A stretch of DNA of 32,768 nt from Brucella haematophila (lineage in GTDB: Bacteria; Pseudomonadota; Alphaproteobacteria; Rhizobiales; Rhizobiaceae): positions 1-32,768 of the forward strand of contig NZ_VCPE01000028.1 in assembly GCF_005938105.1 (NCBI RefSeq), written 5' to 3'. The number at the start of each line of letters is the position of its first letter. The first letter of the stretch is position 1. Made by a program: the position numbers and the translations under genes. Under the pieces are notes generated by a model. That model was given only the letters and a program-made list of their open reading frames with translations. It was not told the DNA's origin and did not search any database. Positions 3,437 to 28,684 of this stretch are shown piece after piece.

Positions 3437-3460
3437 GGCCGCCCTTTGGGTGGCCTTTTT
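3437..3460 (+). terminator. Intercistronic intrinsic terminator before the tail tube gene
   Basis: GGCCGCC, a 5-base loop and GGTGGCC form a 7-bp stem with one wobble, followed directly by TTTTT (3456-3460). It lies inside the late operon, so downstream tail genes need read-through, antitermination or processing. Confidence 0.65.
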
Positions 3461-3475
3461 AGTATGGAGGCCGCA

Positions 3476-3925
3476 TTGGCCCAAGCTACCACGATCAAAG
3501 GCGGCAAGGTCCGCGTCAAGATCGGCAACGGCGCTACGCCGATTGTTTATACTTCGCCCTGCGGGTTCACGCAGCGATCGATTACGCTAACAAAGAACCT
3601 CAATGAAGTTTCCATTCCGGATTGTGAAAATCCTGACAAGGTGGACTGGATTGGACGTGACGCCGCATCACTTTCGATGAGTATTAGCGGTGAAGGCGTT
3701 CTGGCTTCTGAATCTGTCGAGGATTGGCTTGATGCTGGTGAAAGTATCGACTCCATTCCAGTACAGGTTGAGATCGAGTTTCCAGCCACGACATACACCT
3801 ATACCGGCAAAATGCACGCCGAAAGCCTCGAAATCGGCGCCAACAACGGCGAGCGTGCCACACTTAATGTGTCGCTGCAGTCGGATGGTGAAATGGTCCG
3901 AACCTCCGCTCCGACGGCCCCATAA
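3476..3925 (+). CDS. Major tail tube protein
   Basis: The 149-residue product resembles tail tube proteins of the TP901-1/Phage_tail_2 class: MAQATTIKGGKVRVKIGNG at the start, QRSITLTKNLNEVSIPDC, and a long beta-rich body ending EIGANNGERATLNVSLQSDG. It polymerises into hexameric rings forming the tail tube. I chose the TTG at 3476 because GGAGG (3467-3471, spacing 4-5) precedes it and the resulting start fits the family; ATG at 3464 or TTG at 3446 would lie in the terminator tail. It overlaps the next gene (ATAATGA). Confidence 0.82.
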   Translation: MAQATTIKGGKVRVKIGNGATPIVYTSPCGFTQRSITLTKNLNEVSIPDCENPDKVDWIGRDAASLSMSISGEGVLASESVEDWLDAGESIDSIPVQVEIEFPATTYTYTGKMHAESLEIGANNGERATLNVSLQSDGEMVRTSAPTAP

Positions 3926-4365
3926 TGAGCAGAGACGCTAAAGTTGAACTCGACTGGGCGGATGGTACTTATACCTTCCGCCTCGGATGGGGTGAATTGG
4001 AAGCGCTGCAGGAAGCCTGCGACGCTGGCCCTTGGGTTATTCTGGAGCGGCTATTCACTAAACAGTGCCGGGTTGGCGATATTGCCCACGTTATCCGGCA
4101 GGGATTGATTGGTGGAGGCTTGGAGCCGACTGCCGCCACGAAGCTTGTGCGAACCTATATCGAAAAACGCCCGCCAGCTGAGAATGTCGTCTTCGCGACA
4201 GTCATTTTGCAGGCTGGCATTCAAGGCGTGCCAGAGGAACCGGTGGGGGAGCAAACGGCGGCAAATCAGACGGAGAGCAACTTGACAGTCTCCCCAACGG
4301 AAAAGTCAGATTTGCCGCGGTCTACGGCAACGGTGCGGCGCTCGGCTTCACGCCGCAAGAGGTAA
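3925..4365 (+). CDS. Tail assembly chaperone, GTA gp10-like, zero-frame product
   Basis: The 146-residue product starts MSRDAKVELDWADGTYTFRL and carries GWGELEALQEACDAGPW, IAHVIRQGLIGGGL and the PPAENVVFATVIL segment typical of the gene-transfer-agent family of tail assembly chaperones. These proteins bind the tape measure protein during tail assembly. The last 30 residues become a basic, serine-rich stretch while the -1 frame shows a conserved-looking sequence, so the functional long form is probably made by frameshifting into the 4490 frame. Confidence 0.8.
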   Translation: MSRDAKVELDWADGTYTFRLGWGELEALQEACDAGPWVILERLFTKQCRVGDIAHVIRQGLIGGGLEPTAATKLVRTYIEKRPPAENVVFATVILQAGIQGVPEEPVGEQTAANQTESNLTVSPTEKSDLPRSTATVRRSASRRKR

Positions 4366-4370
4366 GGCGC

Positions 4371-4490
4371 ATGTCCATGTGGCAGTTCATGGCTGCCGTT
4401 GATGGATATGTGACGGCGAACTCGACCGACGATGGCGGCTTGAGCAAGAAGGAAAAAGAAGAGCTTTGGGAGTGGGTGAACGAGGGGTAG
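4371..4490 (+). CDS. Tail assembly chaperone, -1 frame domain (frameshift partner)
   Basis: From the first ATG (4371) this frame encodes 39 residues, MSMWQFMAAVDGYVTANSTD and an acidic-basic tail to WEWVNEG, which match the second chaperone domain of alphaproteobacterial phages and gene transfer agents. The same frame is open from 4182, has no ATG, GTG or TTG before 4371, and the upstream residues (FAAVYGNGAALGFTPQEVRR) look like part of the same domain. I infer -1 frameshifting from the 3925 gene, though independent initiation at 4371 is possible because AAGAGGTAAGG precedes it. Confidence 0.7.
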   Translation: MSMWQFMAAVDGYVTANSTDDGGLSKKEKEELWEWVNEG

Positions 4491-4513
4491 AGACAGCAAC
4501 GGGCGATGAATAG

Positions 4514-5650
4514 TCAGGGAGCGACTATCAACATCAAATAGGCTACAAAAATGACCAAATGCGACAATCCGGTAAGCAAAGTGGTGCGTCCGGTTCCGAA
4601 GCTTACTACGCTCATTGCTAAGGCCATAAGAATTAGAACAATGTCTCCATGTTCAAGCCCCAACGTCAACGGACGAGATACAACGAGACTGGCTACAGCC
4701 ACGGCCGGTATCGTCAAGCCGATAGTGGCGCATGCTGATCCAAGAGCAATGTTGAGGCCGCGTTGAAGCTGATTGTTTAGCGATGCCTTGATGGCCGAAA
4801 TTGCCTCGGGTAGCAGTATGACTAGTGCAATCATGGCGCCGATGATCGCGTCTTTTTGTGGAACTTCGAAATAAGCCAATCCGTCTTCAACTCCAGATGC
4901 GACGAATTCGGTTAGCAACACGATTCCTATTAGTCCGCCGAATAAGAAGAGAAGGTGGGAAAGTATACTGGAATCTGTTCTGTGATTGTCATGATGTTGT
5001 GCGGTGTCGACCTGGATGAAGTCGTCTTTTTGCCCCTTGCTCTGCGCAAATAAAAAACATGCGTAGAGGAGAAATGAAAGTACGGCCACGAACATCAGCT
5101 GCACGGGCGTGAACGTTCCGGAATCGACCGATAGGGTATAGTTGGGCAAAATCATCGTTAGGCCCGTCAAGGCAATTAAGACGGACAGAAACGCGCTCGT
5201 ACCTTGCGTTTTAAGTTCTTGCCTCTTGTGGCGGACGGCGCCAAGGGTAATTGCAAGCCCCACCACCCCTGTACAGACGATCATTACAGTCGAGAAGACG
5301 GATTCACGAGCTAGCGTTGGATTGTTATCGCCGTGCAACATCATTGATAAAATAATGGAGACTTCGATACATGTGACCGCCAATGTTAGGATCAATATCC
5401 CATAAGGTTCACCAACTCGATGCGCGATATACTCAGCGTGATGCAGCGCCGCAAATATTGTGCAGATAACAAGCGCTGAAGCGCCAGCCTCTATTAGTAC
5501 AAGAAGAATAAGATTTGTTTCTATTAAAGTAGATTTTACAAATAATAAGGCAATCGCGAGAATAAAGCTTGCTAGTGGGATGATTTTAACTGGTGAAAGG
5601 ACGTCAGAACGCACGAATTTGCCCCGGTTAATTTGGGATGATTTTGGCAT
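4514..5650 (-). CDS. Calcium/proton antiporter, ChaA/CaCA type
   Basis: The 378-residue integral membrane protein has about ten or eleven hydrophobic segments in two halves. Each half carries an alpha-repeat with a key acidic residue: LTLAVTCIEVSIILSMM (E96) and VILLPEAISAIKASLNNQLQ (E282, followed by NIALGSACATIG). This is the cation:proton exchanger plan, closest to ChaA-like Ca2+(Na+)/H+ antiporters that export cations at the inner membrane. A His/Asp-rich loop lies near residues 206-227. It is antisense between tail chaperone and tape measure genes and looks more AT-rich than they do, so it is probably an acquired passenger gene. Full length, no breaks. Confidence 0.88.
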   Translation of the reverse strand: MPKSSQINRGKFVRSDVLSPVKIIPLASFILAIALLFVKSTLIETNLILLVLIEAGASALVICTIFAALHHAEYIAHRVGEPYGILILTLAVTCIEVSIILSMMLHGDNNPTLARESVFSTVMIVCTGVVGLAITLGAVRHKRQELKTQGTSAFLSVLIALTGLTMILPNYTLSVDSGTFTPVQLMFVAVLSFLLYACFLFAQSKGQKDDFIQVDTAQHHDNHRTDSSILSHLLFLFGGLIGIVLLTEFVASGVEDGLAYFEVPQKDAIIGAMIALVILLPEAISAIKASLNNQLQRGLNIALGSACATIGLTIPAVAVASLVVSRPLTLGLEHGDIVLILMALAMSVVSFGTGRTTLLTGLSHLVIFVAYLMLIVAP

Positions 5651-5717
5651 GCATTGATCCTATGCCGATCCAAGACGGCGAAATGGGCTAAGATATCTCG
5701 CGTTCTCTCTCGCAAAA

Positions 5718-6014
5718 CTAAAACGTCGGTTCCTTCACGCGAGATGCAGATTTGGCGCCGTCGACTCCCGTGGCAAATCCTTCGAAATCACGACCGATAA
5801 TAATGAGCGGCAACGACGCCAGTGATGCGATGCCGCCAATGATCAGTAGCGCATACGGCATCAACATACTTTGATTGTAATAGCCGCCAAATTGGACGTT
5901 CTTCGCAACGGTCGCGAGCAGATCCCAGTAGCCATACGCGGACACCAGAGGGCCGACGAATAGGAACGCGATTCCTAACCAGCCCACTCCATTAAATCTC
6001 TGTTCTATTTTCAT
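5718..6014 (-). CDS. Small two-span membrane protein, hypothetical
   Basis: From the ATG at 6014 the product has 98 residues, MKIEQRFNGVGWLGIAFL, with two hydrophobic segments (about 12-32 and 50-73) joined by a Tyr/Gln-rich loop (VQFGGYYNQSMLMPY) and a charged C-terminus. A longer form from 6059 would start inside the tape measure gene. The start is 12 bases from the tape measure ATG on the other strand. It may be co-transcribed with the antiporter 67 bases downstream. Superinfection exclusion is possible for a small phage membrane protein but nothing here proves it. Confidence 0.65.
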   Translation of the reverse strand: MKIEQRFNGVGWLGIAFLFVGPLVSAYGYWDLLATVAKNVQFGGYYNQSMLMPYALLIIGGIASLASLPLIIIGRDFEGFATGVDGAKSASRVKEPTF

Positions 6015-6026
6015 AGGTGCCCCACC

Positions 6027-8441
6027 ATGGCCACTGACGTAGAGACTCTTGTCGTTCAATTTTCAGCCGATTTCAAGCGTTTGGAGAACGCGATTAATCG
6101 GCAACGTGGTCAATTCACCCGCCAAATGAGCCGTATGGAAAAGTCCGCAGATGCCAGTGTGCAGCGCATAAATGCGGCGCTTGGAAACATCGGCAAGGGC
6201 ACAATGCAAGACCTCGCTGCTCCCCTAACCGGCATTACTGCCGCATTGGGCGCGCGCGAGTTGATGCAGTATGCGGATGCTTGGACGCAGGCTGGAAACC
6301 TTATTCGTTCGTCAGCGACGGCAGCTGGTGTTGGCGCACGTTCGCTGAATGAGTTGAAGGACGGTGCGAACGAAGCTCGGACAAGTCTCGAAGCCTATAC
6401 TGACCTATATGCTCGGCTGATCAGATCGGCCTCCGCCGTAGCCAAGTCGGAAGACGAGATTGCTTTGGCAACGTCGCTTGTCTCGAAAGCCTTTAAGGCT
6501 GGCGGTGCGTCCGCACAGGAACAAGCTGCTGGCATTCTCCAGCTCGGGCAAGCTTTGGGTTCTGGCGTATTGCAGGGCGATGAACTCCGGTCGTTGCGTG
6601 AAAACGCGCCGGTCATTGCGAAGGCAATTGCTGACGAGTTTAAGACCACGATCGCAGGCTTGAAGCAGCTTGGCGCCGATGGGAAACTGACGTCCGATCG
6701 CGTGTTCAAGGCTATCCTGAATGCACAAAAGGGTATTGAGGCTCAGTTCAAGGCCACCAACGCGACCATTGCCGACGCCTTTACGCAGATTAATAACGAG
6801 TTTACCGCTTATATCGGCAATGCCGATAAGTCAGCTGGCGCGAGTAGGCAACTGGTTCAGGCGCTGCAGTATGTTGCTGACAACTTCAAAGAAATAGCCG
6901 ACGTCGTCGCAGCCTTTGCGACCGTGCTGATTACGGCCTTTACTGGCAGGGCAATTGCAGGCGTCGTCGTTGGACTGGGCCAAGCTGTTGTTGCATTGGG
7001 CTCATTCCTGACCGCACTTCGTACAGGTACGAGTGTAGTTGCCGCCTTCAGTGCATCGCTCGGCCCTATTGGTCTTCTGGCTGGTGCAGCCGCCGGGGCC
7101 GTCTATTTGCTCTATAACAATATGTCCTCCGGTGATCGGGCTGCAAAAGCATTCAGTGACGCCATAGATGCCAACAAAGCAGCGCTCGAAGGCGCCGCCA
7201 CAGCATCGCGCCAGTACCAGACTGAATTGGTCAAGCAGATCAGTTTGCAGCTTGAAGCGGCAAAGTCTGCAGCGACTGCGGCTGACACCGCATTCGACGG
7301 TTGGCTGGCAAAAAGCCAAGCGCTTCGTAGTATGGGACTAGAATTCCAGCCCATTGAATCATTTGCGGCGGCAGCCAAGCAAACTGCGCAAAATGCGGGA
7401 AAAGCAGTTTATGAGCTGGAAAAGCAAAAAGCCCGCGCCGAAAAGATCCTCGCCTCAACGCCATCTGGCTACGGCGGCGGCATCGCGACTGCACCAGACG
7501 ACAAGAAGAAGGGCGGCACGAAGAAGACACCCGCCGAACGGTTCGACAGCGATATTCAACGTATCACCGACCGCACATCGGCTCTTGTCGCGGAGACTGA
7601 AGCGCAACGTCAGATCAATCCGTTGATTAATGACTATGGCTTTGCCATGGAAAAGGCGCGCACAGAGCAGGAACTGCTGAATGCTGCCCAGAAGGCGGGC
7701 GTTGCGCTTACTCCTGAGCTGCGAGCGCAGATCGCCCAGACCGCCGATCAGTGGGCACTTGCGAGTGCAGAGGCTAATAAGCTTGCCGAAGCGCAGAACC
7801 GTATTCGGGAAAACGCCGAAGACATGGCGGCCTTTCAGAAAGAATGGGTTGGAGGAATTGCCAGCGATCTTTTGAACGGGGCTGACGCAGCGGAGATATT
7901 TGCTAACTCCCTCGGACGTATCGCAGACAAGTTTATCGAGATCGGCCTTGCGAATATCTTCGATACCGACAAAGGAGGCTTCAATCTATTCGGTGCTCTG
8001 GGCGGCGTGTTCCGTAAGAACGGTGGCCCGGTAAAGCGTGCTGGCGGCGGTATCGTTCGCGGTCCTGGCGGGCCGCGCGGCGATAAAATTCCGGCGATGC
8101 TGAGCGACGAGGAATTCGTGGTGAATGCGGCAGCTACAAAGCGCAATCGCGCTTTGCTGGAAGCCATCAACAGCGGCGGCGTCATTAGACTGAAGGATGG
8201 CGGATCACCTTTGCGCGGGCCATCCATGCCGACCCTCCGCTCATCTGCCTCATCGCAGCAAGCGCAATCCGGCATTGCCGACGTTCGCGTATACGTGGAT
8301 CGTGACGGCAATTGGCAGGCCGAAGTCGAGCGCATTTCACAGCGGAACGTAAAACAGGGGCTTACCGCTTTTGACAAAACGGGCGCGATGCGAACGGCAC
8401 GCGATCTAAGGCAAGTCAATTCAAGGGGGCTAGCAAGGTAA
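6027..8441 (+). CDS. Tail tape measure protein
   Basis: The 804-residue protein sets tail length and is ejected at infection. Residues about 1-60 are coiled-coil-like (LVVQFSADFKRLENAINRQR). Residues about 75-265 form the tape measure N-terminal domain, including AGGASAQEQAAGILQLGQAL and LQGDELRSLRENAPVIAKAI. Hydrophobic segments near 290-360 are typical. The C-terminus has GGPVKRAGGGIVRGPGGPRG and IPAMLSDEEFVVNAAATKRN, a hallmark of lambda-like tape measures. AGGTG (6015-6019) precedes the ATG; because divergent passenger genes abut it, transcription must come from the upstream late operon or from a promoter inside them. Confidence 0.93.
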   Translation: MATDVETLVVQFSADFKRLENAINRQRGQFTRQMSRMEKSADASVQRINAALGNIGKGTMQDLAAPLTGITAALGARELMQYADAWTQAGNLIRSSATAAGVGARSLNELKDGANEARTSLEAYTDLYARLIRSASAVAKSEDEIALATSLVSKAFKAGGASAQEQAAGILQLGQALGSGVLQGDELRSLRENAPVIAKAIADEFKTTIAGLKQLGADGKLTSDRVFKAILNAQKGIEAQFKATNATIADAFTQINNEFTAYIGNADKSAGASRQLVQALQYVADNFKEIADVVAAFATVLITAFTGRAIAGVVVGLGQAVVALGSFLTALRTGTSVVAAFSASLGPIGLLAGAAAGAVYLLYNNMSSGDRAAKAFSDAIDANKAALEGAATASRQYQTELVKQISLQLEAAKSAATAADTAFDGWLAKSQALRSMGLEFQPIESFAAAAKQTAQNAGKAVYELEKQKARAEKILASTPSGYGGGIATAPDDKKKGGTKKTPAERFDSDIQRITDRTSALVAETEAQRQINPLINDYGFAMEKARTEQELLNAAQKAGVALTPELRAQIAQTADQWALASAEANKLAEAQNRIRENAEDMAAFQKEWVGGIASDLLNGADAAEIFANSLGRIADKFIEIGLANIFDTDKGGFNLFGALGGVFRKNGGPVKRAGGGIVRGPGGPRGDKIPAMLSDEEFVVNAAATKRNRALLEAINSGGVIRLKDGGSPLRGPSMPTLRSSASSQQAQSGIADVRVYVDRDGNWQAEVERISQRNVKQGLTAFDKTGAMRTARDLRQVNSRGLAR

Positions 8442-9052: not shown

Positions 9053-9618
9053 TGGCTTTCCCAGCACGTCTACAGCAATTGCTCGACGAGGGCAGGGGCA
9101 AGATAGCCTCGGCCGTCAAAGTCGAATTCGGCACCGGCACTTATGGTTTTTTCTCGGGCAAAGGCAGCATCCCTTACGGCGGCCTCACGTACAACGGCAA
9201 TACGCTGATCGACATCGACGAGCCTATGTATGCGCTCGGCACTGCTGCCCAGCCTGTGACTATGAGATTGCCTGCTGCTGCTGATTTTGGGCTCACACCC
9301 GACAAGCTGAAGCTGATTGAGCAGGAAGACTACAAGAACCGTCCTATCACGTTTTACGACTTCTATTTCGACCCAGACACGAACGCGTTCCTTCACGCTG
9401 AGCCGACCTGGTACGGCTATGTCGATACTATCGACCACCGTGAGGAAGGCGACAATGTTTGGCTGGAAGGCAATATCGAAACCGGTGCGGTCGACAACTT
9501 CCGCGAAGGCTATCGTTATGCCTCGCACGAGGATCAGCAGCTTGTTTCGTTAGGCGACATGCTTTTCGAGTACGCAGCGAGGATCAAGAATGAATTCTTC
9601 AAAATCAAATTCGGCTAG
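9052..9618 (+). CDS. Minor tail protein (tail tip/hub), hypothetical
   Basis: The 188-residue protein begins MAFPARLQQLLDEGRGKI and is beta-rich, with DFYFDPDTNAFLHAEPTWYG and YVDTIDHREEGDNVWLEG. The C-terminal part, RYASHEDQQLVSLGDMLFEY, resembles the end of minor tail proteins that sit in the gpL/DUF2163 position. Stop and start of the neighbours overlap on both sides, so it is co-translated in the tip cluster. Function inferred from synteny. Confidence 0.72.
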   Translation: MAFPARLQQLLDEGRGKIASAVKVEFGTGTYGFFSGKGSIPYGGLTYNGNTLIDIDEPMYALGTAAQPVTMRLPAAADFGLTPDKLKLIEQEDYKNRPITFYDFYFDPDTNAFLHAEPTWYGYVDTIDHREEGDNVWLEGNIETGAVDNFREGYRYASHEDQQLVSLGDMLFEYAARIKNEFFKIKFG

Positions 9619-10027
9619 GATCTCGGGTTGGGATCGGGCGCTGGAAGATATCGCGACGGCGCACGTATCCATCACGCCAGAATGGGGCATCTCGGACTGC
9701 CTGATGACGGCGGCAGAGGCGATCGAAGCGGTTATCGGTGAAAACCCGCTCGCCGAGTTCCGGGGCAAATATAAAACCGAGGCCGGGGCCGCTCGCAAGA
9801 TGCGCGCCAATGGCTGCGAGAACGTCAAGGACGTTTTTGAGAACTACCTCAAGCTTGAACCCGTCAACCGGCTCTCTGCGCGTCGTGGCGACGTCGGCGT
9901 GATGCTGATCAACGACGAATACGTCGCCGGGTTCATTTGCGGCTCTGGCTTTGCGGTCAAACAGCCCAGCGGCCTCGCGTTCTTTCCAGTGACCGAAATC
10001 GAGCAGGCCTACAGGGTCGGCAGCTAA
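9590..10027 (+). CDS. Tail-tip NlpC/P60-like protein (DUF6950-like)
   Basis: The 145-residue product has WGISDCLMTAAEAIEAV (about 34-50), where the Asp-Cys pair matches the nucleophile region of NlpC/P60-like folds, and RRGDVGVMLINDEYVAGFIC (about 99-118), the usual RGD-V/I strand. The clear catalytic histidine of active peptidases is not obvious, so peptidoglycan cleavage during DNA entry is uncertain. It lies just before the J-like gene, the normal place of gpK-type proteins, and overlaps the previous gene by 29 bases. Confidence 0.72.
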   Translation: MNSSKSNSARISGWDRALEDIATAHVSITPEWGISDCLMTAAEAIEAVIGENPLAEFRGKYKTEAGAARKMRANGCENVKDVFENYLKLEPVNRLSARRGDVGVMLINDEYVAGFICGSGFAVKQPSGLAFFPVTEIEQAYRVGS

Positions 10028-10051
10028 TCACCACTACAATTTGCGCCTTTG

Positions 10052-10078
10052 AAGGTCCGCCAACAGCGGGCCTTTTTT
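10052..10078 (+). terminator. Intrinsic terminator between tail-tip genes
   Basis: AAGGTCCGC, loop CAACA and GCGGGCCTT form a 9-bp stem with one wobble, followed by a T6 tract (10073-10078). It separates the NlpC-like gene from the J-like gene inside the same late transcription unit. Confidence 0.7.
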
Positions 10079-10100
10079 GTTGCGCCTATGAGGCCGCCGT

Positions 10101-12701
10101 ATGCCATTTTTAGCGCCTATCTTCACCGCTATCGGCGGCATCGTGTCGAGCGTGGCCGCATGGGCGGCAGCCAGTCCGATCCTCGCCGGTATAGCTCAGA
10201 CCGCATTCGGCATTGCACTGAAATACGCGGTCAATGCTCTATTCCCTCCCAAGACGCAGAGCCGCGCATCTGAACTGGAAACCCAGTATGGCGCAAATAT
10301 CCCGCGCTCTGTCATTCTCGGCACATGTGCGACCGAAGGCCATCATATTTATCGCAATAGCTACGGTAGCGGCGGCCGTCTAATCCAAGACGTGTTCGTT
10401 CTGTCAAGCTTCCGCATTACGTCTGTACCGCGGGTCCGATACAACGGTGAGTGGCGCACGCTTATTGCGCAAGACGCGGACGGATACTGGCTTGTGCCGA
10501 ATGAAGGCACGAGCGGCGACGATCACGACAATGTACGCGTCAAGTTCTACTACGGCGCGATGGATCAGCAGGCCGAGCCGACGCTAATCAATAATGCCCG
10601 TCCTGCTGGTCGCTGGACAACGAACCATCGTGGCGCTGGCGTTGCCTATGCCATCGTGTTTTCCGAACTTCGCAAGAATGGTGATGGCCTCACCTCGCCA
10701 GCAAAGTTGCTGTTCGAAGTTGTCGGCGCGCCGCTGTATGACTGGCGCAAAGACACCACGATGGGCGGTGCGGGAGCGCATCGCTGGGATGACCAGAGCA
10801 CGTGGGAATACTCCGATAATCCGGTTGTCCAGATCTACAACCTGGAGCGCGGTTTCTTCAACGGCACGCAGCGCATGGTTGGCAAGGCTGTTCGTGCAAG
10901 CCGGTTGCCGTTGGCTGAGTATACCCAGGCGGCGAACATCTGCGATGAAAGTATGTCGGACGGTTCGAAGCGCTATCGCTCTCATGCGATTGCCAAGGAC
11001 GGCCCCGGCGCTAATCACGACGCTAACCTGACACCGATCCTTGAAGCCATGTGCGGCTCATGGGTGGAGCGTGTTGACGGCGAGTTCCCGATTGCGGGCG
11101 CTCCACAGGCCATCGTTGCCACGATCACCGATGACGATATCAAGCGTGGTGCGGCGTTGCGCTTCAGCGTCAAGCGCAAGCGCACGGAACTGATCAACAC
11201 TGTCGCGGCCTCGTATGTCTCGCCAGATGACTTCTATGAAACGAAGGACGCGGCAACCCGCATCGATGCCGGTGCATTGGCTGAAGATCGCGAAACGCTT
11301 GCCAGCGCCATTCCTTATGCCGCCGTCACTGATGTTCGGCAGGTGGATCGGCTTGCAGATATCGCGATCCGCGGCGCTCGTTATCAGGCTTCAGCCGAAA
11401 TTGTCGTTCATCCGAAATTCCTAGACACGATCAAGGAAGGCCGGTGGGTGCGCTGGAATAGCGCAAAATATGGCGACCGCACGTTTCAGGTTTTGACGCG
11501 CCAGCTTGGCGGGATCAATACCGATGGCGCTCGCGATATTTCCTTATCTTTGCAGCAGATCAGCAATGGCGTGTTTGATCCGACGGCCTATGAAACCAAC
11601 CCGCCGAACATCGTCGTTATTCCGCCTCCGCAATACCTGGCTGAAGTGCAGAACTTCTTCGCCATCCCGACGCTTGTTGTTGCGGATGGTCAAGGTGAAC
11701 TACCCGCTGCCAGACTGATCTGGGATAGTATCGATGATATCTCGGTCGTTGGTGTCAATATTGAGTACTGGCCGGCGAACGATCCCAGCCAGGTGTTCAC
11801 GCGATTTGTGACATGGGACGTGACGAACGTCCTACTGGTCGAAGGCCTGACCTCACTGACTGACTGGTTCGTTCGTACGCGCTTGCGCGTCGACAATGGC
11901 CGATCGGTGGCGTGGTCAACGAATACGCCATTCACCACGCTCAACGCAGCGGGCGACGATAGCCCGGTTGATTACGAGCGCCTCGACAGTGACGTGAAGG
12001 GCCTCATCAACTGGATGACTGACGACCGGCGCGAGGCGCTTCGTCAGGCGCAGGAAAACGCCACCAAGACCGCTGATGGCATGCTGGCCGGTTATGCAGA
12101 TAGCCGGTCGCTTCGTCGCGAACTTGCCAGCACATACGGCAAGGCGAAAGCTTCGTGGTCGGAAGACATCTATGTGGCGACCGGCCCGAATAGCGCCATC
12201 GTGCAGCAACTGACACAGTTGAACGCCGAGCTTGATGACAAGGCTGATGCCAGCGTCGTGACGCTTCTGTCTACGCGAGTGGATAATGTTGAGGGCCAAT
12301 ACACAGCCGTCGCGGATGCGATCACTGACGTGAACGCGTCGGTCGATGGCACTGTGGTTAACTCCGGCTGGCGCATGACATCGACGGTTGGCGCGGGTGG
12401 CACATCGGCCAGAATATCGGCCTATGCCCGCATCAGCACCGGCGACACTTGGAAACAGGCTGGCTGGTTCATCAACGTGACCCCGACGGGAAGCCAGTTC
12501 ATCGTCGTGTCCAACCAGTTCGCGATTGCCGATCCGAACAATAACGGCACCTTCACCTATCCGTTCGTCGTGCAGAACGGGCAGGTCTACATTCAAAATG
12601 CCCGTCTCGGAACGCTGTATTTCGACGTGCTTCAGTCCAACAATGGCAAGTTGATCATGCGCGGTTACGACAACTTTGCAGATATCAGGATTTTCACATG
12701 A
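10101..12701 (+). CDS. Tail tip attachment protein, lambda J-like host specificity protein
   Basis: The 866-residue protein starts with a hydrophobic stretch (FTAIGGIVSSVAAWAAASPI) and then AVNALFPPKTQSRASELETQ, a common opening of central tail-tip proteins. The region around 60-500 has the J-like hub features VRYNGEWRTLI, NPVVQIYNLERGFFNG and DDIKRGAALRFSVKRKRTEL. After 500 there are fibronectin-like beta segments (LIWDSIDDISVVGVNIEYWP), then a coiled region (LTQLNAELDDKADASVVTLL) and a C-terminal DUF1983-type tip. It forms the tail tip and probably contacts the receptor. Its stop overlaps the next ATG (ATGA). Confidence 0.88.
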   Translation: MPFLAPIFTAIGGIVSSVAAWAAASPILAGIAQTAFGIALKYAVNALFPPKTQSRASELETQYGANIPRSVILGTCATEGHHIYRNSYGSGGRLIQDVFVLSSFRITSVPRVRYNGEWRTLIAQDADGYWLVPNEGTSGDDHDNVRVKFYYGAMDQQAEPTLINNARPAGRWTTNHRGAGVAYAIVFSELRKNGDGLTSPAKLLFEVVGAPLYDWRKDTTMGGAGAHRWDDQSTWEYSDNPVVQIYNLERGFFNGTQRMVGKAVRASRLPLAEYTQAANICDESMSDGSKRYRSHAIAKDGPGANHDANLTPILEAMCGSWVERVDGEFPIAGAPQAIVATITDDDIKRGAALRFSVKRKRTELINTVAASYVSPDDFYETKDAATRIDAGALAEDRETLASAIPYAAVTDVRQVDRLADIAIRGARYQASAEIVVHPKFLDTIKEGRWVRWNSAKYGDRTFQVLTRQLGGINTDGARDISLSLQQISNGVFDPTAYETNPPNIVVIPPPQYLAEVQNFFAIPTLVVADGQGELPAARLIWDSIDDISVVGVNIEYWPANDPSQVFTRFVTWDVTNVLLVEGLTSLTDWFVRTRLRVDNGRSVAWSTNTPFTTLNAAGDDSPVDYERLDSDVKGLINWMTDDRREALRQAQENATKTADGMLAGYADSRSLRRELASTYGKAKASWSEDIYVATGPNSAIVQQLTQLNAELDDKADASVVTLLSTRVDNVEGQYTAVADAITDVNASVDGTVVNSGWRMTSTVGAGGTSARISAYARISTGDTWKQAGWFINVTPTGSQFIVVSNQFAIADPNNNGTFTYPFVVQNGQVYIQNARLGTLYFDVLQSNNGKLIMRGYDNFADIRIFT

Positions 12702-14281
12702 CGCAGATTATCCTTGGCTTCAAACCGGGCGTTGGCCCGGTTCTGAAGTGCCTGAAATATGACACGGATGATCCGCTGACACTGGCAAACACGGCATTCG
12801 ACAGGTTCTTTTACAATTCCGAGAATAGCAACCTGTCCTATGTGTTCCCGACGAACCCGTTTTTCTATCGCTCGGCAGAGCTGTCCGCGCTTCCGGCGAC
12901 ATTCAACATTACAAATGATCGGGGCAATGTTGTTATTTCTGGACGTGCTAACCCATCATCTGGAACAACTTTCTACAATGTCACGACGTACTACAGAATA
13001 ACGAATGCCTATCCGAGCATGGGCTATGTTCCAATGTCGGAGTTCAGACAGGTTGACTTGCTGACCAACCGAATTGAGTGCGGGTCTTTCCTCAGCTATT
13101 ACGCCTTGGTTGGCTCGACCAATCATAACGTGGTGACGGCGCAGCAATTCTATACCGTGATGGGCCGATTGGTTGGAACAACGAGCGGATCAACCACCTT
13201 TCCGACAGTTTACAACGGCATAATCTCCTCGACTGACCAAGGCTTTGTCGGGATGGGGGAATGGTTCGTCTGGAAAAATCAGCTGATCTACACCGACAAT
13301 AGAAACCCGAACGCCATTTATCCGAGTGTATGGGATTTGCCTGCCGATGCGTCGGCTATGCGGACCTATACGTCTACTGCGGGCCTTCTATCGTTGGAAG
13401 CAAGTTCCAGCCGGTTTGTGCTGTCCAGACCCGGCTATGATGTGAATACGACGAATGAGTTTGGCACGATCATCAGCTCGAACAATCGTTCGCCTGCTCT
13501 CTGCGTCATGAACGGAACAGAAAATAATATCCCGGGCAATGGATCGAGAACGATTTCAGCACCTGCTGGCGTCATTCTTTCGCAAAGGGCGGTCGTTGAC
13601 GTGATGTTCCGTGTCTCCGGTCAGACGTGGCGCGTACCTGGACTTCTGACCGACACCACAGCGGCGGGAATTTGGCGTTTATCTTACACCGTGTCCAATA
13701 ACAGCGTCACGTTCTACAATTCGGAGAAAGACGCCGTTGATTTGCGGTATGTCGTTTTCAACGTGGATGATCAGCCGACATCAACGGGCGGCAATCAGGT
13801 TATCTTTCGGGGAAACGATGGAGCGAGGGATTTCGTTCAGATCAAGAAACCCGGCACGAGTGACCCTGCCAGTCGTCCGAACGATATCCTCTTTGACAGC
13901 CGCTACCCGCAATTCCAGATCATCGCGCAGGGCTTTATTCCGATATCCAGCTTTGGCAATTCGTCGGCAGGGGACGCGGTATATAAGGGCGCGAGAACGT
14001 ATCGGCTGAACTTCAACAATGCCGGTTTCGTGCCCTATCTGAAATACTCAACCGTGTTTCCGAACTGCGTGACGACGCCGATCTACAGAGCCGAGCGCGG
14101 GGTTGATGTCTCCAACATATCCATGCTGGCCGAAGTGAACGACACCTATGTCGATTTCTTCTGCTCGCCCGATAGCGGTTGGTCCGATGCTTTCAGTCAG
14201 GCTGGCAGCTGGACCCGCCTTGATTACGGTGCCCGTATTCAGGGTGTCCGGTATTACATCTTCGGCATAACGCCGAGCTGA
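12698..14281 (+). CDS. Tail tip protein of unknown function
   Basis: This 527-residue protein starts MTQIILGFKPGVGPVLKCLK and is strikingly rich in Asn, Ser, Thr and aromatic residues, with no predicted membrane segment, as expected of an extended beta-structured virion protein. It is coupled to the J-like gene by ATGA and followed 17 bases later by the tail fibre gene. Short motif-like segments recur (SVTFYNSEKDAVDLRYVVFN, TFYNVTTYY). I do not recognise the family; a receptor-binding or baseplate accessory role is inferred only from position. Confidence 0.65.
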   Translation: MTQIILGFKPGVGPVLKCLKYDTDDPLTLANTAFDRFFYNSENSNLSYVFPTNPFFYRSAELSALPATFNITNDRGNVVISGRANPSSGTTFYNVTTYYRITNAYPSMGYVPMSEFRQVDLLTNRIECGSFLSYYALVGSTNHNVVTAQQFYTVMGRLVGTTSGSTTFPTVYNGIISSTDQGFVGMGEWFVWKNQLIYTDNRNPNAIYPSVWDLPADASAMRTYTSTAGLLSLEASSSRFVLSRPGYDVNTTNEFGTIISSNNRSPALCVMNGTENNIPGNGSRTISAPAGVILSQRAVVDVMFRVSGQTWRVPGLLTDTTAAGIWRLSYTVSNNSVTFYNSEKDAVDLRYVVFNVDDQPTSTGGNQVIFRGNDGARDFVQIKKPGTSDPASRPNDILFDSRYPQFQIIAQGFIPISSFGNSSAGDAVYKGARTYRLNFNNAGFVPYLKYSTVFPNCVTTPIYRAERGVDVSNISMLAEVNDTYVDFFCSPDSGWSDAFSQAGSWTRLDYGARIQGVRYYIFGITPS

Positions 14282-14298
14282 TCTCAGGAGAAAAATCC

Positions 14299-15342
14299 AT
14301 GACTATTTTGTCCGACTATGTGTCGGGAACGATTTCGCTCGCCAATGGGTCAGTGACGGTCACTGGCACCGGGACGTTGTTCGAGGTGACGCAGTTTCGG
14401 GAAGGCGACACTCTTCAAATCCAGAACCTGACGGCTGTCATTGCCAGCGTCGATAGCAATACCCAGTTGACGCTCACTGAGCCTTGGACCGGCGCAAGCA
14501 TCGTCAACGGTGCATACCGTGCTCGCCAGCTTGGCGATGGATCGCGGGTCTCGACGCAAGCCGCAACCATTATCGAACTGCTGGGCAATGGCATTCTGGC
14601 CAATATCGCTGAACTTGGCGTCGAAGAGAGCAAGGTTCTCATCGGTGGCCCGACAGGGGAATGGCAACTGAAGGACCAAGGCAAAATCGGCATCCAAGAC
14701 CCGAACGGAAGCCTTGGCAAGCTGGCGGCGCTAACGCTCGCGGCGAACAAAATTCTCAATACCGATGCATCAGGTGATCTTACCCAGTCTGACATTACGG
14801 CAACGGCCATTTCACTCCTTGCCGCCGCTGATCCTGCATCTGCTCGTTTGGTTCTTGGGGCATTCGCCTCTGCTGGTGGAGATATTTCAGGCCAGACTAA
14901 CTTCACCGGGGGTACAATCCAACTTGGTGCCGCTGGCGGAACGCGGACGCTATTACGTTACGACGGGACAATCAGTTATGACGGCGGGACCACATGGTAT
15001 CCGATCTATAGTGCTGGTGGGACTGGCTTCGTAATGATGGGCGCTCAAGGGTATATCGTGTTCCCAAATCTAGCCGCCCCCAATCGCCTGACCATTCAGT
15101 GGGGGTATGACACAGGTTCAGGTGATAGAACGATCACCTACCCTATTGCTTTCGCTAATAATTACACTGTCATTCCCGCAATTAGTAATGGAGCGGGGTC
15201 CGATGCCGGAAGTTCTGTATTCGTTGCGGTCAGTGCTTTTGCCACAACTGGATTTACAATCAGGCCACGATACATCAACGGAACAAGTGGGCCGGCTATT
15301 GCAACTCAACCAGTCGGATGGATAGCGGTGGGGAGAACTTGA
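14299..15342 (+). CDS. Tail fibre protein with gp53-like C-terminal domain
   Basis: The 347-residue protein begins with a repetitive beta domain (YVSGTISLANGSVTVTGTGT, residues about 6-75) that likely attaches to the tip. A low-complexity Ala/Leu-rich shaft follows, then a C-terminal domain (about 255-347) with TIQWGYDTGSGDRTITYPIA, FATTGFTIRPRY and final GWIAVGRT. That pattern matches the gp53-like tail fibre C-terminal domain, a receptor-binding knob. CAGGAGAAAAATCC precedes the ATG. The gene immediately upstream of a putative assembly protein and an O-antigen acyltransferase suggests a surface-polysaccharide receptor. Confidence 0.82.
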   Translation: MTILSDYVSGTISLANGSVTVTGTGTLFEVTQFREGDTLQIQNLTAVIASVDSNTQLTLTEPWTGASIVNGAYRARQLGDGSRVSTQAATIIELLGNGILANIAELGVEESKVLIGGPTGEWQLKDQGKIGIQDPNGSLGKLAALTLAANKILNTDASGDLTQSDITATAISLLAAADPASARLVLGAFASAGGDISGQTNFTGGTIQLGAAGGTRTLLRYDGTISYDGGTTWYPIYSAGGTGFVMMGAQGYIVFPNLAAPNRLTIQWGYDTGSGDRTITYPIAFANNYTVIPAISNGAGSDAGSSVFVAVSAFATTGFTIRPRYINGTSGPAIATQPVGWIAVGRT

Positions 15343-15343
15343 T

Positions 15344-15865
15344 ATGATTTTCGCTGTATTAGACGATAACAATGTGCCGAAGGGCTTTTACCGAGATGAT
15401 GTTCACGGTTCTAGAAACCGACCGATTTATGGGAACACTCCGGAACCAACGTCGGATGATCCATACCCAGTTGCGCCAGTAATTGGGGAAGAGACAAACC
15501 CTGATTGTCGCATTCCCGTAGAGGCTATAGAGATTACGGAGGCACAATGGCGTGAATGTCTTGAAAATAGTGGCCGACGCCAGTTCATCAAAAACGATGA
15601 TGGTGAATATCAGCTTGTCGAACATACGCCGCCAGAGCCAGAGCCAGACGCCACCGTTCTGCCAGCCGTTACTCTCTGGGAACGCATGACTGATGACGAG
15701 GCAGAGCAGGTCAACGCGGCGATGGCTACGCAGCCTTTCCGAACTCGACAAATCTTCCTGACGGCGAATACGTTCCGATCAGATCATGAGCTTTGGCCGC
15801 TGCTTGTTCAGATGGCGACGGAATTGTTTGGCGAAGAGAGAGCAGGTGATCTGTTGTTCAGTTAA
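15344..15865 (+). CDS. Tail fibre assembly-like protein
   Basis: The 173-residue product starts one base after the fibre gene stop and reads MIFAVLDDNNVPKGFYRDDV, then VPVEAIEI-like and ITEAQWRECLENSGRRQF, the usual opening of proteins encoded after tail fibres. The second half is acidic (PPEPEPD) and ends in a helical part (LWPLLVQMATELFGEE). Tail fibre chaperones have this position and N-terminal pattern, so an assembly role is likely but not proven. Confidence 0.68.
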   Translation: MIFAVLDDNNVPKGFYRDDVHGSRNRPIYGNTPEPTSDDPYPVAPVIGEETNPDCRIPVEAIEITEAQWRECLENSGRRQFIKNDDGEYQLVEHTPPEPEPDATVLPAVTLWERMTDDEAEQVNAAMATQPFRTRQIFLTANTFRSDHELWPLLVQMATELFGEERAGDLLFS

Positions 15866-15874
15866 CGAGTATAC

Positions 15875-16978
15875 TTAAGCGCGAATTTCTTTGTGTTTGA
15901 AGGCAAAAAAATGGCCACTTACGTGGTCGCGTGATGGCGCGAACTTTGATTTCAGTCTCAACATCGGCTTTTCGACATATTTATATGATGCCCATGAGAG
16001 CATCATCGTCAGTGGGAGAAGAATAAAAATAGCGTGGAGATGTTTCGTCAGCAACGACATTTCCTGGGATCGGAAAAACGTTACATCGAACCAAACAATT
16101 GGGAAATTGTATAGGTATATGCCATAGGAAATTCTGCCTACATATGTCAGCCAGTTCAACTCAAGAACTTGGTGTAGCAGAGTTTTCTTATGCATAGCTA
16201 AAGAGATAACAACAACCGCAGTTGCAGTAATCGCTATCGGTTGTTTCCATATAAGATAATCTACTGGGTAAACTGCAACCGCTGTCACAATTATTGCGGC
16301 GGGAAATGACAGGTATTTAATCGCTTGATTGAGATGGGTCAAAAAGCCGCCATTCAATAAAAGCGCCGCAAGTGCTCCCATAAAGAGCGCTCCCGATCTG
16401 GTTGGCAAGCTACTGCTGACCCACAACATTGGTGCTGAAAAAATGACGGATGCGAGTAGTGTCGCTTGGCAAACAACAATTAGTATGATGGCTGCGAAAA
16501 TAACAGCCCGATAGCGCGGCAAAACCTTAATTAAGCCGAGCAATAAAAGCGGCCAAAAAAGATAAAACTGTTCCTCTATAGAGAGCGTCCAAGTATGCGC
16601 GAACTGTCTCATATCCATAAGGTCGAGTGACCGGACCCAGTTGCTTACATAAAGCAGGGACCATAAAGCGGGCCAAAATGTCTGTTGTACGCTCAAAAAT
16701 CCGAGCGCTACCCCTCCGACCCCAAAAATCAAAACTGTTAAAAGTAAAGCAGGCACTAGGCGCAACGCACGTTTAACGAAGAAAGTGCGGAATGAGATTG
16801 TTCCTGTCCTATCTATTTCTGAGATGAGCAGGGACGTAATGAGGAAACCGCTTAGAACCAAGAATAGGTCAACGCCAAGTTGGGCGCTACGTACACCTAA
16901 AAAGCTGTCGAAATGATGAAATACCACTAAGAGCACAGCAATACCGCGAATGCCGTCGAAGCTTTTTATCCGTCCCAT
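15875..16978 (-). CDS. Acyltransferase family 3 (OafA/YrhL-like O-antigen acetylase)
   Basis: From ATG 16978 the product has 367 residues and about ten membrane segments. Family signatures are FDGIRGIAVLLVVFHHF (residues 7-23, with the His pair), GVDLFLVLSGFLITSLLI, RRALRLVP-like KRALRLVPALLL, WTLSIEEQFYLFWP and GRISYGIYLYNFPIVW. Such enzymes transfer acetyl groups across the inner membrane to LPS O-antigen or other glycans; the extra SGNH domain of long members is absent. It faces the late operon, looks more AT-rich and is bounded on its upstream side by a + strand terminator. Serotype conversion of the lysogen is inferred. Confidence 0.88.
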   Translation of the reverse strand: MGRIKSFDGIRGIAVLLVVFHHFDSFLGVRSAQLGVDLFLVLSGFLITSLLISEIDRTGTISFRTFFVKRALRLVPALLLTVLIFGVGGVALGFLSVQQTFWPALWSLLYVSNWVRSLDLMDMRQFAHTWTLSIEEQFYLFWPLLLLGLIKVLPRYRAVIFAAIILIVVCQATLLASVIFSAPMLWVSSSLPTRSGALFMGALAALLLNGGFLTHLNQAIKYLSFPAAIIVTAVAVYPVDYLIWKQPIAITATAVVVISLAMHKKTLLHQVLELNWLTYVGRISYGIYLYNFPIVWFDVTFFRSQEMSLLTKHLHAIFILLPLTMMLSWASYKYVEKPMLRLKSKFAPSRDHVSGHFFAFKHKEIRA

Positions 16979-17053
16979 TTTGCTGCCCTTGCAAGTCGCT
17001 AGATAGATAGCATTGCTTACTGGCCAACACAACTAATGTAACAACCGGAATTA

Positions 17054-17077
17054 CCGCCCACTGAGGCGGCTTTTTTT
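17054..17077 (+). terminator. Intrinsic terminator, + strand
   Basis: CCGCC, loop CACTGA, GGCGG and T7 (17071-17077). It points in the direction of the tail operon although the nearest gene on its left is antisense, as if the acyltransferase had been inserted between the tail genes and their terminator. Confidence 0.65.
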
Positions 17078-17084
17078 GCTTAAG

Positions 17085-17108
17085 AAAAACCCCGGACTAG
17101 CCGGGGTT
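17085..17108 (-). terminator. Intrinsic terminator of the DUF982/30-residue ORF unit
   Basis: AACCCCGG, loop ACTAG and CCGGGGTT give an 8-bp stem (17088-17108). On the - strand it is followed by a T tract (17085-17089 region), placing it directly after the stop of the 17113-17205 ORF. Confidence 0.7.
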
Positions 17109-17112
17109 AAGG

Positions 17113-17205
17113 CTATTGTCGCCGCCTGGTGTCCCAGAAAAGCACCGATATGACGCTGAGCAATGCAGCGAGGATGGGGACTTCGATTAGAAAATACCAA
17201 TGCAT
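17113..17205 (-). CDS. 30-residue single-span membrane protein
   Basis: A 31-codon frame encodes MHWYFLIEVPILAALLSVIS, VLFW and a basic end DTRRRQ. This is one transmembrane span with positive residues at the end. AGGG lies eight bases before the ATG, the ORF starts 10 bases after the DUF982 stop, and a strong terminator follows its own stop by five bases. That gene-like packaging supports expression. Function is unknown; a small lysis- or exclusion-related membrane peptide is possible. Confidence 0.5.
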   Translation of the reverse strand: MHWYFLIEVPILAALLSVISVLFWDTRRRQ

Positions 17206-17215
17206 TGATATTCCC

Positions 17216-17518
17216 TCATACCAGAACGCGGCCACCGCCGTCGCCATGCGAAGTCATCCACGGCATGGCGGCTTCAGGTTTTTCGAGAATGTTGCGTTTT
17301 CGAGCGAAGCCTTCAAAGGCGTTATGCGCCACGATTAGCGGTTTCAGCCCGCTGTGAGCCTCACAACAGGCGCTCCATGCCACTTCATAGATGATGTCGC
17401 GATCATCCTTTGGCCATTCATAAAGAAAATCGATTGCGTCAATCGGGCCTGCAATCTCCCTGATCAGAAATTTGCCGTCCTTCACAAAAATTGGACTGTC
17501 AAACAAACGGTCGCTCAT
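17216..17518 (-). CDS. DUF982 domain protein
   Basis: The 100-residue product has the DUF982 pattern: FDSPIFVKDGKFLIREIAGP, DAIDFLYEWP, a Cys-containing central helix (YEVAWSACCEAHSGLKPL) and a helix with AHNAFEGFARK. DUF982 proteins are abundant in Rhizobiales genomes and plasmids and have no known function. The ATG at 17518 is preceded by GGAGG at spacing 6; a GTG/ATG four codons earlier is less likely. It is divergent from the endolysin gene across a 107-bp gap and probably co-transcribed with the 30-residue ORF. Confidence 0.8.
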   Translation of the reverse strand: MSDRLFDSPIFVKDGKFLIREIAGPIDAIDFLYEWPKDDRDIIYEVAWSACCEAHSGLKPLIVAHNAFEGFARKRNILEKPEAAMPWMTSHGDGGGRVLV

Positions 17519-17625
17519 CGAAACCTCCATTTGATCGAACGAAGTGTGTTGGAATGACGGCTTCGATTTAGTGATTGCGTCGGCGGTTTCAAGAACCTCT
17601 TATCCTTAATTTTCAGGAAATCCCC

Positions 17626-18489: not shown

Positions 18490-18677
18490 GGATCACAAGG
18501 ATTGCCCTTGAATATGACAGCGACGCGGGAACGGCCACGGTGAGGATCGATAACGGTTCGCAGCAGTGGAACAACGCCAAACTCACAGTCTGCGATGCCA
18601 TCGAAACGCGCGACGGCTACCTGCTGCCGATCACAGGGCAGCAGCGCGCGCTTATTTTGACAGGAGTGCCGACATGA
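18486..18677 (+). CDS. Hypothetical protein of the lysis cassette
   Basis: A GTG start overlaps the endolysin stop (GTGA) and the ORF ends by overlapping the Rz-like ATG. It encodes 63 residues, MRITRIALEYDSDAGTATVR and QQRALILTGVPT, a small soluble beta-rich protein without membrane segments or cysteine pairs. Tight coupling on both sides supports translation. I do not recognise it. Confidence 0.65.
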   Translation: MRITRIALEYDSDAGTATVRIDNGSQQWNNAKLTVCDAIETRDGYLLPITGQQRALILTGVPT

Positions 18678-18910
18678 CCTGGCTCTTATCCCTGCGCTCC
18701 AAAATCACAGGCTGGGCCGTGGCAATCGCTGCGGCCCTTGCGATTCTGGCGGGTGCTTACCTCAAGGGCGTGGCGGACAACGCCACAATCGCCACCGCCG
18801 ACCGGCTGAATGCCGCCAATAAAGCAAGGAAGATCGAAGATGAAACCAGCAAGCTTGGCGGCGGTGATGTTGACGCTGCTCTGTCTCGGTGGATGCGTGA
18901 CAGCCGGTAG
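18674..18910 (+). CDS. Rz-like inner membrane spanin subunit
   Basis: From ATG 18674 (CAGGAG upstream) the product has 78 residues: an N-terminal transmembrane signal anchor (ITGWAVAIAAALAILAGAYL, about 10-29), a helical periplasmic part (DRLNAANKARKIEDETSKLG) and the ending DAALSRWMRDSR. That is the layout of short i-spanins. The Rz1-like lipoprotein gene starts inside it in another frame, the classic embedded or overlapping Rz/Rz1 arrangement. Together they fuse inner and outer membranes in the last lysis step. Confidence 0.8.
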   Translation: MTWLLSLRSKITGWAVAIAAALAILAGAYLKGVADNATIATADRLNAANKARKIEDETSKLGGGDVDAALSRWMRDSR

Positions 18911-28605: not shown

Positions 28606-28641
28606 CAGGCCATGATTCCGTTCCGTCGACTTGTCGGCTCG

Positions 28642-28665
28642 TGTGCCATTGTATATTGTGTGCCA
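28642..28665. promoter_or_regulatory. Pair of TGTGCCA sites upstream of integrase (candidate arm-type sites)
   Basis: TGTGCCA at 28642-28648 and 28659-28665 are direct copies 17 bp apart, just upstream of the integrase ribosome site. The same heptamer occurs inverted twice after the gene. Integrase binding here could also autoregulate int. Confidence 0.6.
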
Positions 28666-28684
28666 AAATTATCAGGAGTTCATT

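What the first reader, a model, noticed from the sequence alone, without database searches (positions are those of the whole stretch)
4514..6014. Calcium/proton antiporter and a small membrane protein embedded antisense in the tail operon
A full-length, apparently intact CaCA antiporter sits between the tail chaperone and tape measure genes, a place where siphovirus gene order is normally strict. The pair is on the opposite strand and more AT-rich. A phage-carried cation exporter could give the lysogen calcium or salt tolerance, or change Ca2+-dependent adsorption by rival phages.
Basis: partly seen in the sequence, partly recalled or inferred. Interest (0 to 1): 0.7.

Follow-up and report, generated by a model that had tools for sequence, protein, structure and literature searches.

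The report
Antiporter in a swappable prophage slot
A prophage carries an ordinary cation/proton antiporter and a small membrane protein, read backwards between two tail genes, and this spot proves to be a swappable cargo site where related phages keep other envelope and defence-like genes, probably to shield the bacterium from rival phages.

Summary
A 378-aa CaCA (ChaA-like) antiporter (4514-5650, -) and a 98-aa two-helix membrane protein (5718-6014, -) lie between the tail chaperone genes and the tape-measure gene (TMP) of a temperate siphophage. The host genome falls in Brucella in the GTDB sense (inferred). The antiporter is ordinary: under purifying selection, with many chromosomal and plasmid relatives, and seen at this junction only here and in 7 near-identical metagenome contigs.

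The junction is the interesting part. In relatives the space before TMP runs from nothing to about 3.4 kb. In 61 of 68 examined loci a credible antisense ORF starts within 75 nt of TMP. These proteins form about 16 unrelated families, each with a hydrophobic, export-type segment. One family is a secreted copy of host TolA domain III. Larger cargo beside it includes RelA/SpoT, TIR-ATPase, NYN, DUF3800 and HIRAN proteins. HK97's exclusion gene 15 sits at the same junction.

Best reading: a modular moron site. The TMP-adjacent slot (here the hairpin protein) encodes entry exclusion; the distal slot carries variable defence or fitness cargo, here a cation exporter. Function is inferred; no expression or phenotype was tested.

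The parts
4514..5650 (-). CaCA-family (ChaA-like) cation/proton antiporter, 378 aa; distal cargo of the site
   Evidence: Pfam Na_Ca_ex 2.2e-23; aligned with E. coli ChaA with an acidic residue kept in both repeats (meaning of the motif recalled)
5651..5717 (.). 67-nt spacer between the two antisense genes; 100% identical in L024, unlike the other relatives
5718..6014 (-). 98-aa two-helix membrane protein in the TMP-adjacent slot; member of the largest slot family (21 of 63 slot proteins)
   Evidence: dN below dS
3446..3925 (+). tail tube protein (flank)
   Evidence: Pfam Phage_tail_2 5.8e-19; phrog_1407
3925..4365 (+). tail assembly chaperone, GTA-gp10 type (flank)
   Evidence: Pfam Phage_TAC_11 1.9e-22
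4371..4490 (+). 39-aa ORF after the chaperone; its stop codon is the left boundary of the cargo site
   Evidence: phrog_18467 2.5e-4; boundary alignment
6027..8441 (+). tape measure protein; its start codon is the right boundary of the cargo site
   Evidence: Pfam TMP_3 8.9e-53; phrog_17300 1.9e-237; boundary alignment

Best explanation
The chaperone-TMP junction of these alphaproteobacterial siphophages is a modular moron site. Its boundaries are the stop codon of the short ORF after the tail chaperone and the start codon of TMP (shown in close relatives). The slot next to TMP encodes, antisense, one of many unrelated small proteins with an export-type hydrophobic segment (shown), which I infer are made in the lysogen and block genome entry by related siphophages at the inner membrane or in the periplasm, as HK97 gp15 does. 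In this window the slot holds the 98-aa hairpin protein. The distal slot holds exchangeable cargo; here it is an intact CaCA cation/proton antiporter taken from the accessory gene pool of rhizobia and their kin (shown by kinship), which I infer is made in the lysogen and exports Ca2+ or Na+/K+ in exchange for protons, as fitness cargo. It need not act together with the hairpin protein.
For: Variable spacing and cargo at one precise place. Of 68 loci examined, 63 have an antisense ORF of at least 45 aa starting within 75 nt of TMP, 61 after setting aside two doubtful ones; the other 5 have gaps of 171 nt or less. With one representative for each of 18 families, doubtful ones included, 16 of 18 have a hydrophobic segment (mean KD over 17 residues at least 1.3) against 60 of 154 other antisense ORFs of 80-200 aa in the same loci, p = 5e-5. 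The hairpin family spans 21 loci down to 28% identity with fixed G, P and R residues. HK97 gp15, the described exclusion moron, lies between gp13/14 and the TMP gp16; HK97 hybrids with another phage's tube and TMP escape it (passage in PMC10883804). Defence-like distal cargo: RelA/SpoT = PADLOC PDC-S33 6.6e-121, TIR+AAA = PDC-S59 1.1e-14, and by Pfam NYN, DUF3800, HIRAN. Antiporter: both repeats intact and purifying selection, relatives at E <= 1e-50 in 83 of 394 family genomes. Integrase in the window.
Against: No transcript or phenotype data. The sigma-70 scan found no promoter on the minus strand in 3800-6600. HK97 gp15 has no detectable sequence relation to the hairpin family (hhalign probability 0.2) and lies on the sense strand. 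Association of slot type with TMP sequence is highest near the TMP start (r2 0.18-0.28 in the first 360 nt, 0.25 at 481-600, 0.07-0.16 beyond 600), which physical linkage explains; it gives no clear sign of a matched target region. The slot is missing in Labrenzia phage V1, which has an annotated CI repressor. PADLOC has no match for the antiporter, NYN or DUF3800 proteins.
Confidence: 0.5

Rival explanations
1. Pure lysogenic conversion for host fitness: both genes serve cation, envelope or pH homeostasis of the lysogen, and neither acts on phages.
For: The antiporter's relatives are ordinary chromosomal or plasmid 'ionic transporter' genes. The Ochrobactrum phage POA1180 carries putative chromate and sulfate transport genes (abstract and passages of PMC5492332). 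The window prophage also carries an antisense O-acetyltransferase-like gene.
Against: Does not explain why the TMP-adjacent slot is filled by many unrelated small envelope-type proteins, nor the defence-like distal cargo.
Confidence: 0.25
2. The antiporter is itself part of phage exclusion: by changing local Ca2+ or the proton gradient it hinders adsorption or genome entry of rivals, alone or with the hairpin protein.
For: It sits in a site whose other cargo is partly defence-like; both products are membrane proteins. That phage entry can depend on Ca2+ and membrane energy is recalled, not tested.
Against: No PADLOC match; its relatives lie outside phages among ordinary genes; the hairpin protein occurs without it in 16 of 21 loci.
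Confidence: 0.12
3. The antisense genes are lytic-phase factors (tail assembly, lysis or control of the tail operon by antisense transcription) rather than lysogen genes.
For: The slot gene starts 12 nt from TMP, divergently, and the first 20 TMP codons have low synonymous diversity (0.195 against 0.359; rank 9 of 705 overlapping windows), so the two starts may share signals.
Against: Slot families are unrelated to each other, 5 of 68 loci have no slot ORF, and the cargo is exported or defence-like rather than structural.
Confidence: 0.13

Closest known systems
HK97 gp15 moron (superinfection exclusion)
   Same: Small predicted inner-membrane protein encoded between tail chaperone and tape measure genes; reported to block DNA injection, with escape by exchange of tube and TMP genes (passage in PMC10883804).
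   Different: Sense strand with an annotated putative terminator; 62 aa; no detectable sequence kinship with the hairpin family.
Phage and satellite defence hotspots (P2/P4-type)
   Same: One genome place with variable anti-phage cargo (PMC9122126, title and abstract start in the listing).
   Different: Different phages and place; here an extra TMP-adjacent slot with small exported proteins.
ChaA-type CaCA antiporters
   Same: Full-length alignment with E. coli ChaA, both repeats kept; Pfam Na_Ca_ex.
   Different: Below the NCBIfam cut-offs of ChaA and caca2; encoded in a prophage tail region.
Defences that act through the tape measure protein (Tab, SNIPE, TP-J34 Ltp)
   Same: Small or membrane proteins whose action depends on TMP (passages of PMC10884400, PMC13190303 and PMC10883804).
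   Different: Tab is encoded between the terminase genes (passage); no sequence link to the window's genes was tested.

Membership tests
CaCA (Na_Ca_ex) superfamily | Pfam Na_Ca_ex match over the curated cut-off | tested here: met
   83.3 bits against 24.9, two stretches
CaCA (Na_Ca_ex) superfamily | conserved acidic residue in both repeats (recalled as ion-binding) | tested here: met
   E in VTCIEVS and E in LLPEAIS align with E. coli ChaA
ChaA equivalog | NCBIfam ChaA model over its cut-off | tested here: not met
   217.9 bits against 505
ChaA equivalog | Na+(K+, Ca2+)/H+ exchange | not testable with these tools
   needs a transport assay
HK97 gp15-type superinfection exclusion | gene between tail chaperone and TMP | tested here: met
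   window; HK97
HK97 gp15-type superinfection exclusion | small membrane protein | tested here: met
   hydropathy, helical hairpin model
HK97 gp15-type superinfection exclusion | sequence homology to gp15 | tested here: not met
   hhalign probability 0.2
HK97 gp15-type superinfection exclusion | blocks DNA injection by related phages; expressed in the lysogen | not testable with these tools
   needs plating tests and RNA-seq
Phage cargo/defence hotspot | same flanking core genes with different cargo in relatives | tested here: met
   gap and cargo tables, boundaries
Phage cargo/defence hotspot | cargo includes known or candidate defence proteins | tested here: met
   PDC-S33 6.6e-121 and PDC-S59 1.1e-14; two strong matches, and two weak ones (PDC-M03B 3.8e-4, PDC-S66 6e-4), among the 25 proteins scanned; candidate systems only
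TolA domain III (slot family of relatives, not in the window) | sequence and fold match to the TolA C-terminal domain | tested here: met
   hhalign 98.3, 39% over 80 columns; BLASTP 33% over 78; Foldseek first hit 1lr0, E 4.2e-3, probability 1.00, no hit at E <= 0.001, model pLDDT 71; direct PDB sequence search found nothing

The most novel reading that the evidence does not exclude
Siphophages of rhizobia, Brucella-type bacteria and their kin keep a dedicated entry-exclusion slot, antisense to the tape measure gene and within 75 nt of its start, filled by convergent, unrelated envelope proteins (hairpins, lipoproteins, and a secreted decoy copied from host TolA domain III) that block genome entry of kin phages; a second, distal slot trades intracellular defences and, here, a cation antiporter. 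The TolA copy would be a prophage-made decoy of a cell-envelope machine that filamentous phages and colicins use as a receptor.
Probability: 0.35. Interest if true: 0.78.

Novelty: new variant of a known kind. Interest (0 to 1): 0.6.

Why it matters
If the reading holds, one precise genome position predicts exclusion genes in a phage group whose defences are hardly studied, without needing homology to known systems. It gives a list of about 16 unrelated candidate exclusion proteins, including a TolA-domain copy, for direct plating tests, and asks why such genes gather beside the tape measure gene, the protein through which several known exclusion systems act. The antiporter itself adds a cation exporter to the ion-transport genes seen in phages of these hosts.

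Tried and rejected
Promoter: no minus-strand sigma-70-like site in 3800-6600 (one on the plus strand, 2.4 expected by chance). Low synonymous diversity at the start of TMP (24 sequences) hints at overlapping information but ranks only 9 of 705 overlapping windows and could reflect translation initiation or recombination. Matched TMP target region: association with slot type is highest near the TMP start and not clearly elsewhere; nearly all windows exceed label shuffles, which ignore relatedness. HK97 gp15 homology: none. Fold search of the hairpin in viral models: best match A0A6G5Y1P0, unnamed, E 1.0e-3. PDB sequence search: none for the hairpin or the TolA-like protein; the antiporter hits only YfkE, 1.3e-3. 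Fixed pairing of antiporter and hairpin: rejected. Antiporter as a general feature of this phage group: rejected. Slot as a mark of temperate phages only: unclear; RHph_X2_26 lacks a credible slot gene and shows no annotated integrase or repressor in 9119-18849 and 19000-68000 (the rest was not looked at), but V1 lacks the slot and has a CI repressor. A paper search for antiporter, prophage, moron and calcium (15 of 272 listed, titles and abstract starts only) showed no phage-borne calcium antiporter.

Rows dropped before counts: the 68 loci are the window, 42 of 49 viral loci, 13 of 22 genome loci and 12 phage records (11 distinct of the 13, plus V1). Left out: viral L022, L054, L058, L059, L065-L067 and genome loci L099, L102, L106, L107, L109-L113, for lack of a chaperone or TMP match, L112 by hand in the script. 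Of these, L022 has the hairpin and L102 a signal-peptide-like ORF at the slot, while L106, L107, L109 and L111 show only doubtful antisense ORFs. Boundaries of 14 loci were set by hand from annotations or earlier output. Many loci are near-identical: the 63 slot proteins are 39 distinct at 95%. HK97 is not among the 68. In one search I had hand-picked 19 representatives (two from one family, doubtful ones left out: 19 of 19 against 70 of 167); one search repeats the test with every family and is the one to use. 'Export-type' rests on hydropathy alone; no signal-peptide or topology program was run.

Full report
What is there. The window is bases 1-32768 of contig C21 of a 5.5-Mb genome. Contig G031:C52 (28,185 bp), with the 78%-identical antiporter, matches in length and gene the Brucella thiophenivorans contig NZ_NNRJ01000057.1 (28,185 bp), and G031 is 'same genus', so the host is inferred to be Brucella in the GTDB sense, which includes former Ochrobactrum (recalled). 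The window holds a siphophage late region: major capsid 57-1343, tail tube, GTA-gp10-type chaperone, tape measure, and an integrase at 28631-29830 (phrog_1, 1.7e-62), so the phage is of temperate type.

The two antisense genes. Both reported genes are real and at the reported place. The antiporter (378 aa) matches Pfam Na_Ca_ex (2.2e-23) and aligns with E. coli ChaA, keeping an acidic residue in both repeats (the meaning of the motif is recalled). It is below NCBIfam's cut-offs for ChaA (217.9 against 505 bits) and caca2 (189.5 against 317): a CaCA antiporter of ChaA type, not a ChaA equivalog. The ion is not known. dN 0.18 and dS 2.65 (saturated) against the B. thiophenivorans copy show purifying selection. 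The host genome has a second, distant copy (28%).

Where the antiporter comes from. Relatives at E <= 1e-50 are in 83 of 394 genomes of the family, and 105 of 72,556 plasmid records match at 1e-5, the best 62% identical and many annotated 'ionic transporter' (neighbours are not phage genes). The B. thiophenivorans copy lies about 3 kb from genes that I read as plasmid replication genes from their translations (recalled, not scanned). None of 35 other CaCA loci checked (L136-L164, L002, L010-L012, L115, L116) shows a tail gene of this phage within the DNA held, mostly 1.5 kb on each side. In the viral collection the antiporter occurs in 7 contigs, 99-100% identical, all beside the chaperone genes, and beside the hairpin gene and TMP in the 4 whose DNA reaches that far. 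The phage collection has two weak matches, 31% and 36%. So it is a captured accessory gene, seen in this phage and in a metagenome phage that shares about 99.5% of the chaperone-antiporter-hairpin-early TMP stretch; after the first ~800 nt TMP drops to about 80%.

The junction is a cargo site. Forty-nine viral loci with a related TMP and 22 genome loci show chaperone-to-TMP distances from about 0.1 to 3.5 kb where both genes were found. Close relatives agree up to the stop codon of the short ORF after the chaperone and again from the TMP start. Where the hairpin gene is shared, the neighbouring DNA changes exactly at its stop codon: antiporter here, DUF6966 protein, HIRAN-like protein or TIR-ATPase elsewhere. 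Distal cargo identified in single representatives: RelA/SpoT (PADLOC PDC-S33, 6.6e-121), TIR+AAA ATPase (PDC-S59, 1.1e-14), NYN, DUF3800, HIRAN-like, BRO- and Rha-type antirepressors. PADLOC gave no match for the NYN, DUF3800 and antiporter proteins. Some of the larger cargo lies on the sense strand.

The TMP-adjacent slot. In 63 of 68 loci examined an antisense ORF of at least 45 aa begins within 75 nt of TMP; two look spurious (L108, L121), leaving 61. The 5 without one have gaps of 171 nt or less. Compared from residue 23 onward the 63 proteins form 20 BLAST groups; three of these are one 55-aa protein and two are the doubtful ORFs, so about 16 unrelated families. With one representative for each of 18 families, doubtful ones included, 16 of 18 have a hydrophobic segment against 60 of 154 other antisense ORFs of 80-200 aa in the same loci (p = 5e-5); at a stricter threshold 9 of 18 against 5 of 154 (p = 3e-7). 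Two pass the looser threshold only just (L101 1.31, L027 1.38). Published records annotate an antisense 'hypothetical protein' there in RHph_TM3_3_14B, vB_MseS-P1, RHph_X2_25, NV1.1.1, AP-16-3 and RcapNL; none is annotated in RHph_X2_26, V1, ppBeUSDA76-1, Nsp-JY10 and HMSP1-Susan, nor in 16-3, where the ORF is nevertheless present.

The window's slot gene. The 98-aa protein belongs to the largest slot family (21 of 63; 11 distinct at 95%), reaching 28-40% identity in three aligned phages whose TMPs have also diverged. Invariant residues of the 10 aligned sequences include G11, G14, G21, P22, Y54, G60, P69, G74 and R75. It is modelled as a two-helix hairpin with short strands at both ends (pLDDT 78.9). 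dN is below dS in 28 of 28 pairs. All 15 viral loci retrieved with it have it beside TMP; most are contigs already seen.

A TolA copy in relatives. The second slot family is about 114 aa with a signal-peptide-like start; its mature part matches the C-terminal domain of host TolA (host gene read next to tolB): hhalign probability 98.3, 39% identity over 80 columns, BLASTP 33% for a second member. The model (pLDDT 71) finds P. aeruginosa TolA domain III first in the PDB (E 4.2e-3, probability 1.00) and other TolA and TonB C-terminal domains next, though no hit passes E 0.001 and a PDB sequence search found none. A search for papers naming TolA, prophage and superinfection exclusion listed 14, none with such a copy in title or abstract start (not read further).

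How it most likely works. HK97 gp15 stands at the same junction and is reported as a predicted inner-membrane protein that blocks DNA injection, escaped by exchanging tube and TMP genes (passage, PMC10883804). TP-J34 Ltp, Tab and SNIPE also act through TMP (passages). By position, size, hydropathy and variety, I infer that the slot proteins are entry-exclusion factors expressed in the lysogen, and that the antiporter is distal fitness or defence cargo. Shown: anatomy, variability, hydrophobic segments, selection, kinship. Inferred: expression, target, ion, phenotype. Against: no promoter found, no homology to gp15, no clear TMP region matched to slot type beyond the start of the gene.

Novelty. 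Morons, gp15-type exclusion and phage defence hotspots are known. A convergent antisense exported-protein slot at the chaperone-TMP junction across rhizobial-type phages, with a TolA copy, did not appear in the listings of my searches, of which I saw titles, abstract starts and passages of four papers only (PMC10883804, PMC13190303, PMC5492332, PMC10884400); the HK97 gp15 paper itself was not held. I therefore file it as a new variant of a known kind.

Noticed in passing
L030:5642-5986 (-) and relatives L033-L036, L043, L047, L048, L050, L052, L094: Prophage-encoded secreted-type homologue of host TolA domain III in the TMP-adjacent slot.
   Followed up: partly
window 15875-17032 (-): Antisense O-acetyltransferase-like gene (phrog_6705 'O-antigen acetylase', 2.5e-50) after the tail genes: a second likely lysogenic conversion gene.
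   Followed up: no
L037:3969-5573 (+): TIR domain with an AAA ATPase in the distal slot, on the sense strand: likely defence protein.
   Followed up: partly
L039:2693-3781 (+): RelA/SpoT-domain protein in the distal slot matching PADLOC candidate PDC-S33 at 6.6e-121.
   Followed up: partly
window 6027-6086: First 20 codons of TMP have low synonymous diversity (0.195 against 0.359; rank 9 of 705 overlapping windows), perhaps a hidden element for the divergent slot gene.
   Followed up: partly
L029:5647-5985 (-): The slot protein's N-terminal export signal looks disturbed compared with its close relative L047.
   Followed up: no
G000:C1:124154-125263 (L091, L111): A second TMP relative (51%) elsewhere in the same genome, with no convincing slot gene.
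   Followed up: no
window 6801-8400 against L024: TMP is mosaic: about 99.5% identical for its first ~800 nt, then about 80%, so the cargo travels with the TMP 5' end.
   Followed up: partly
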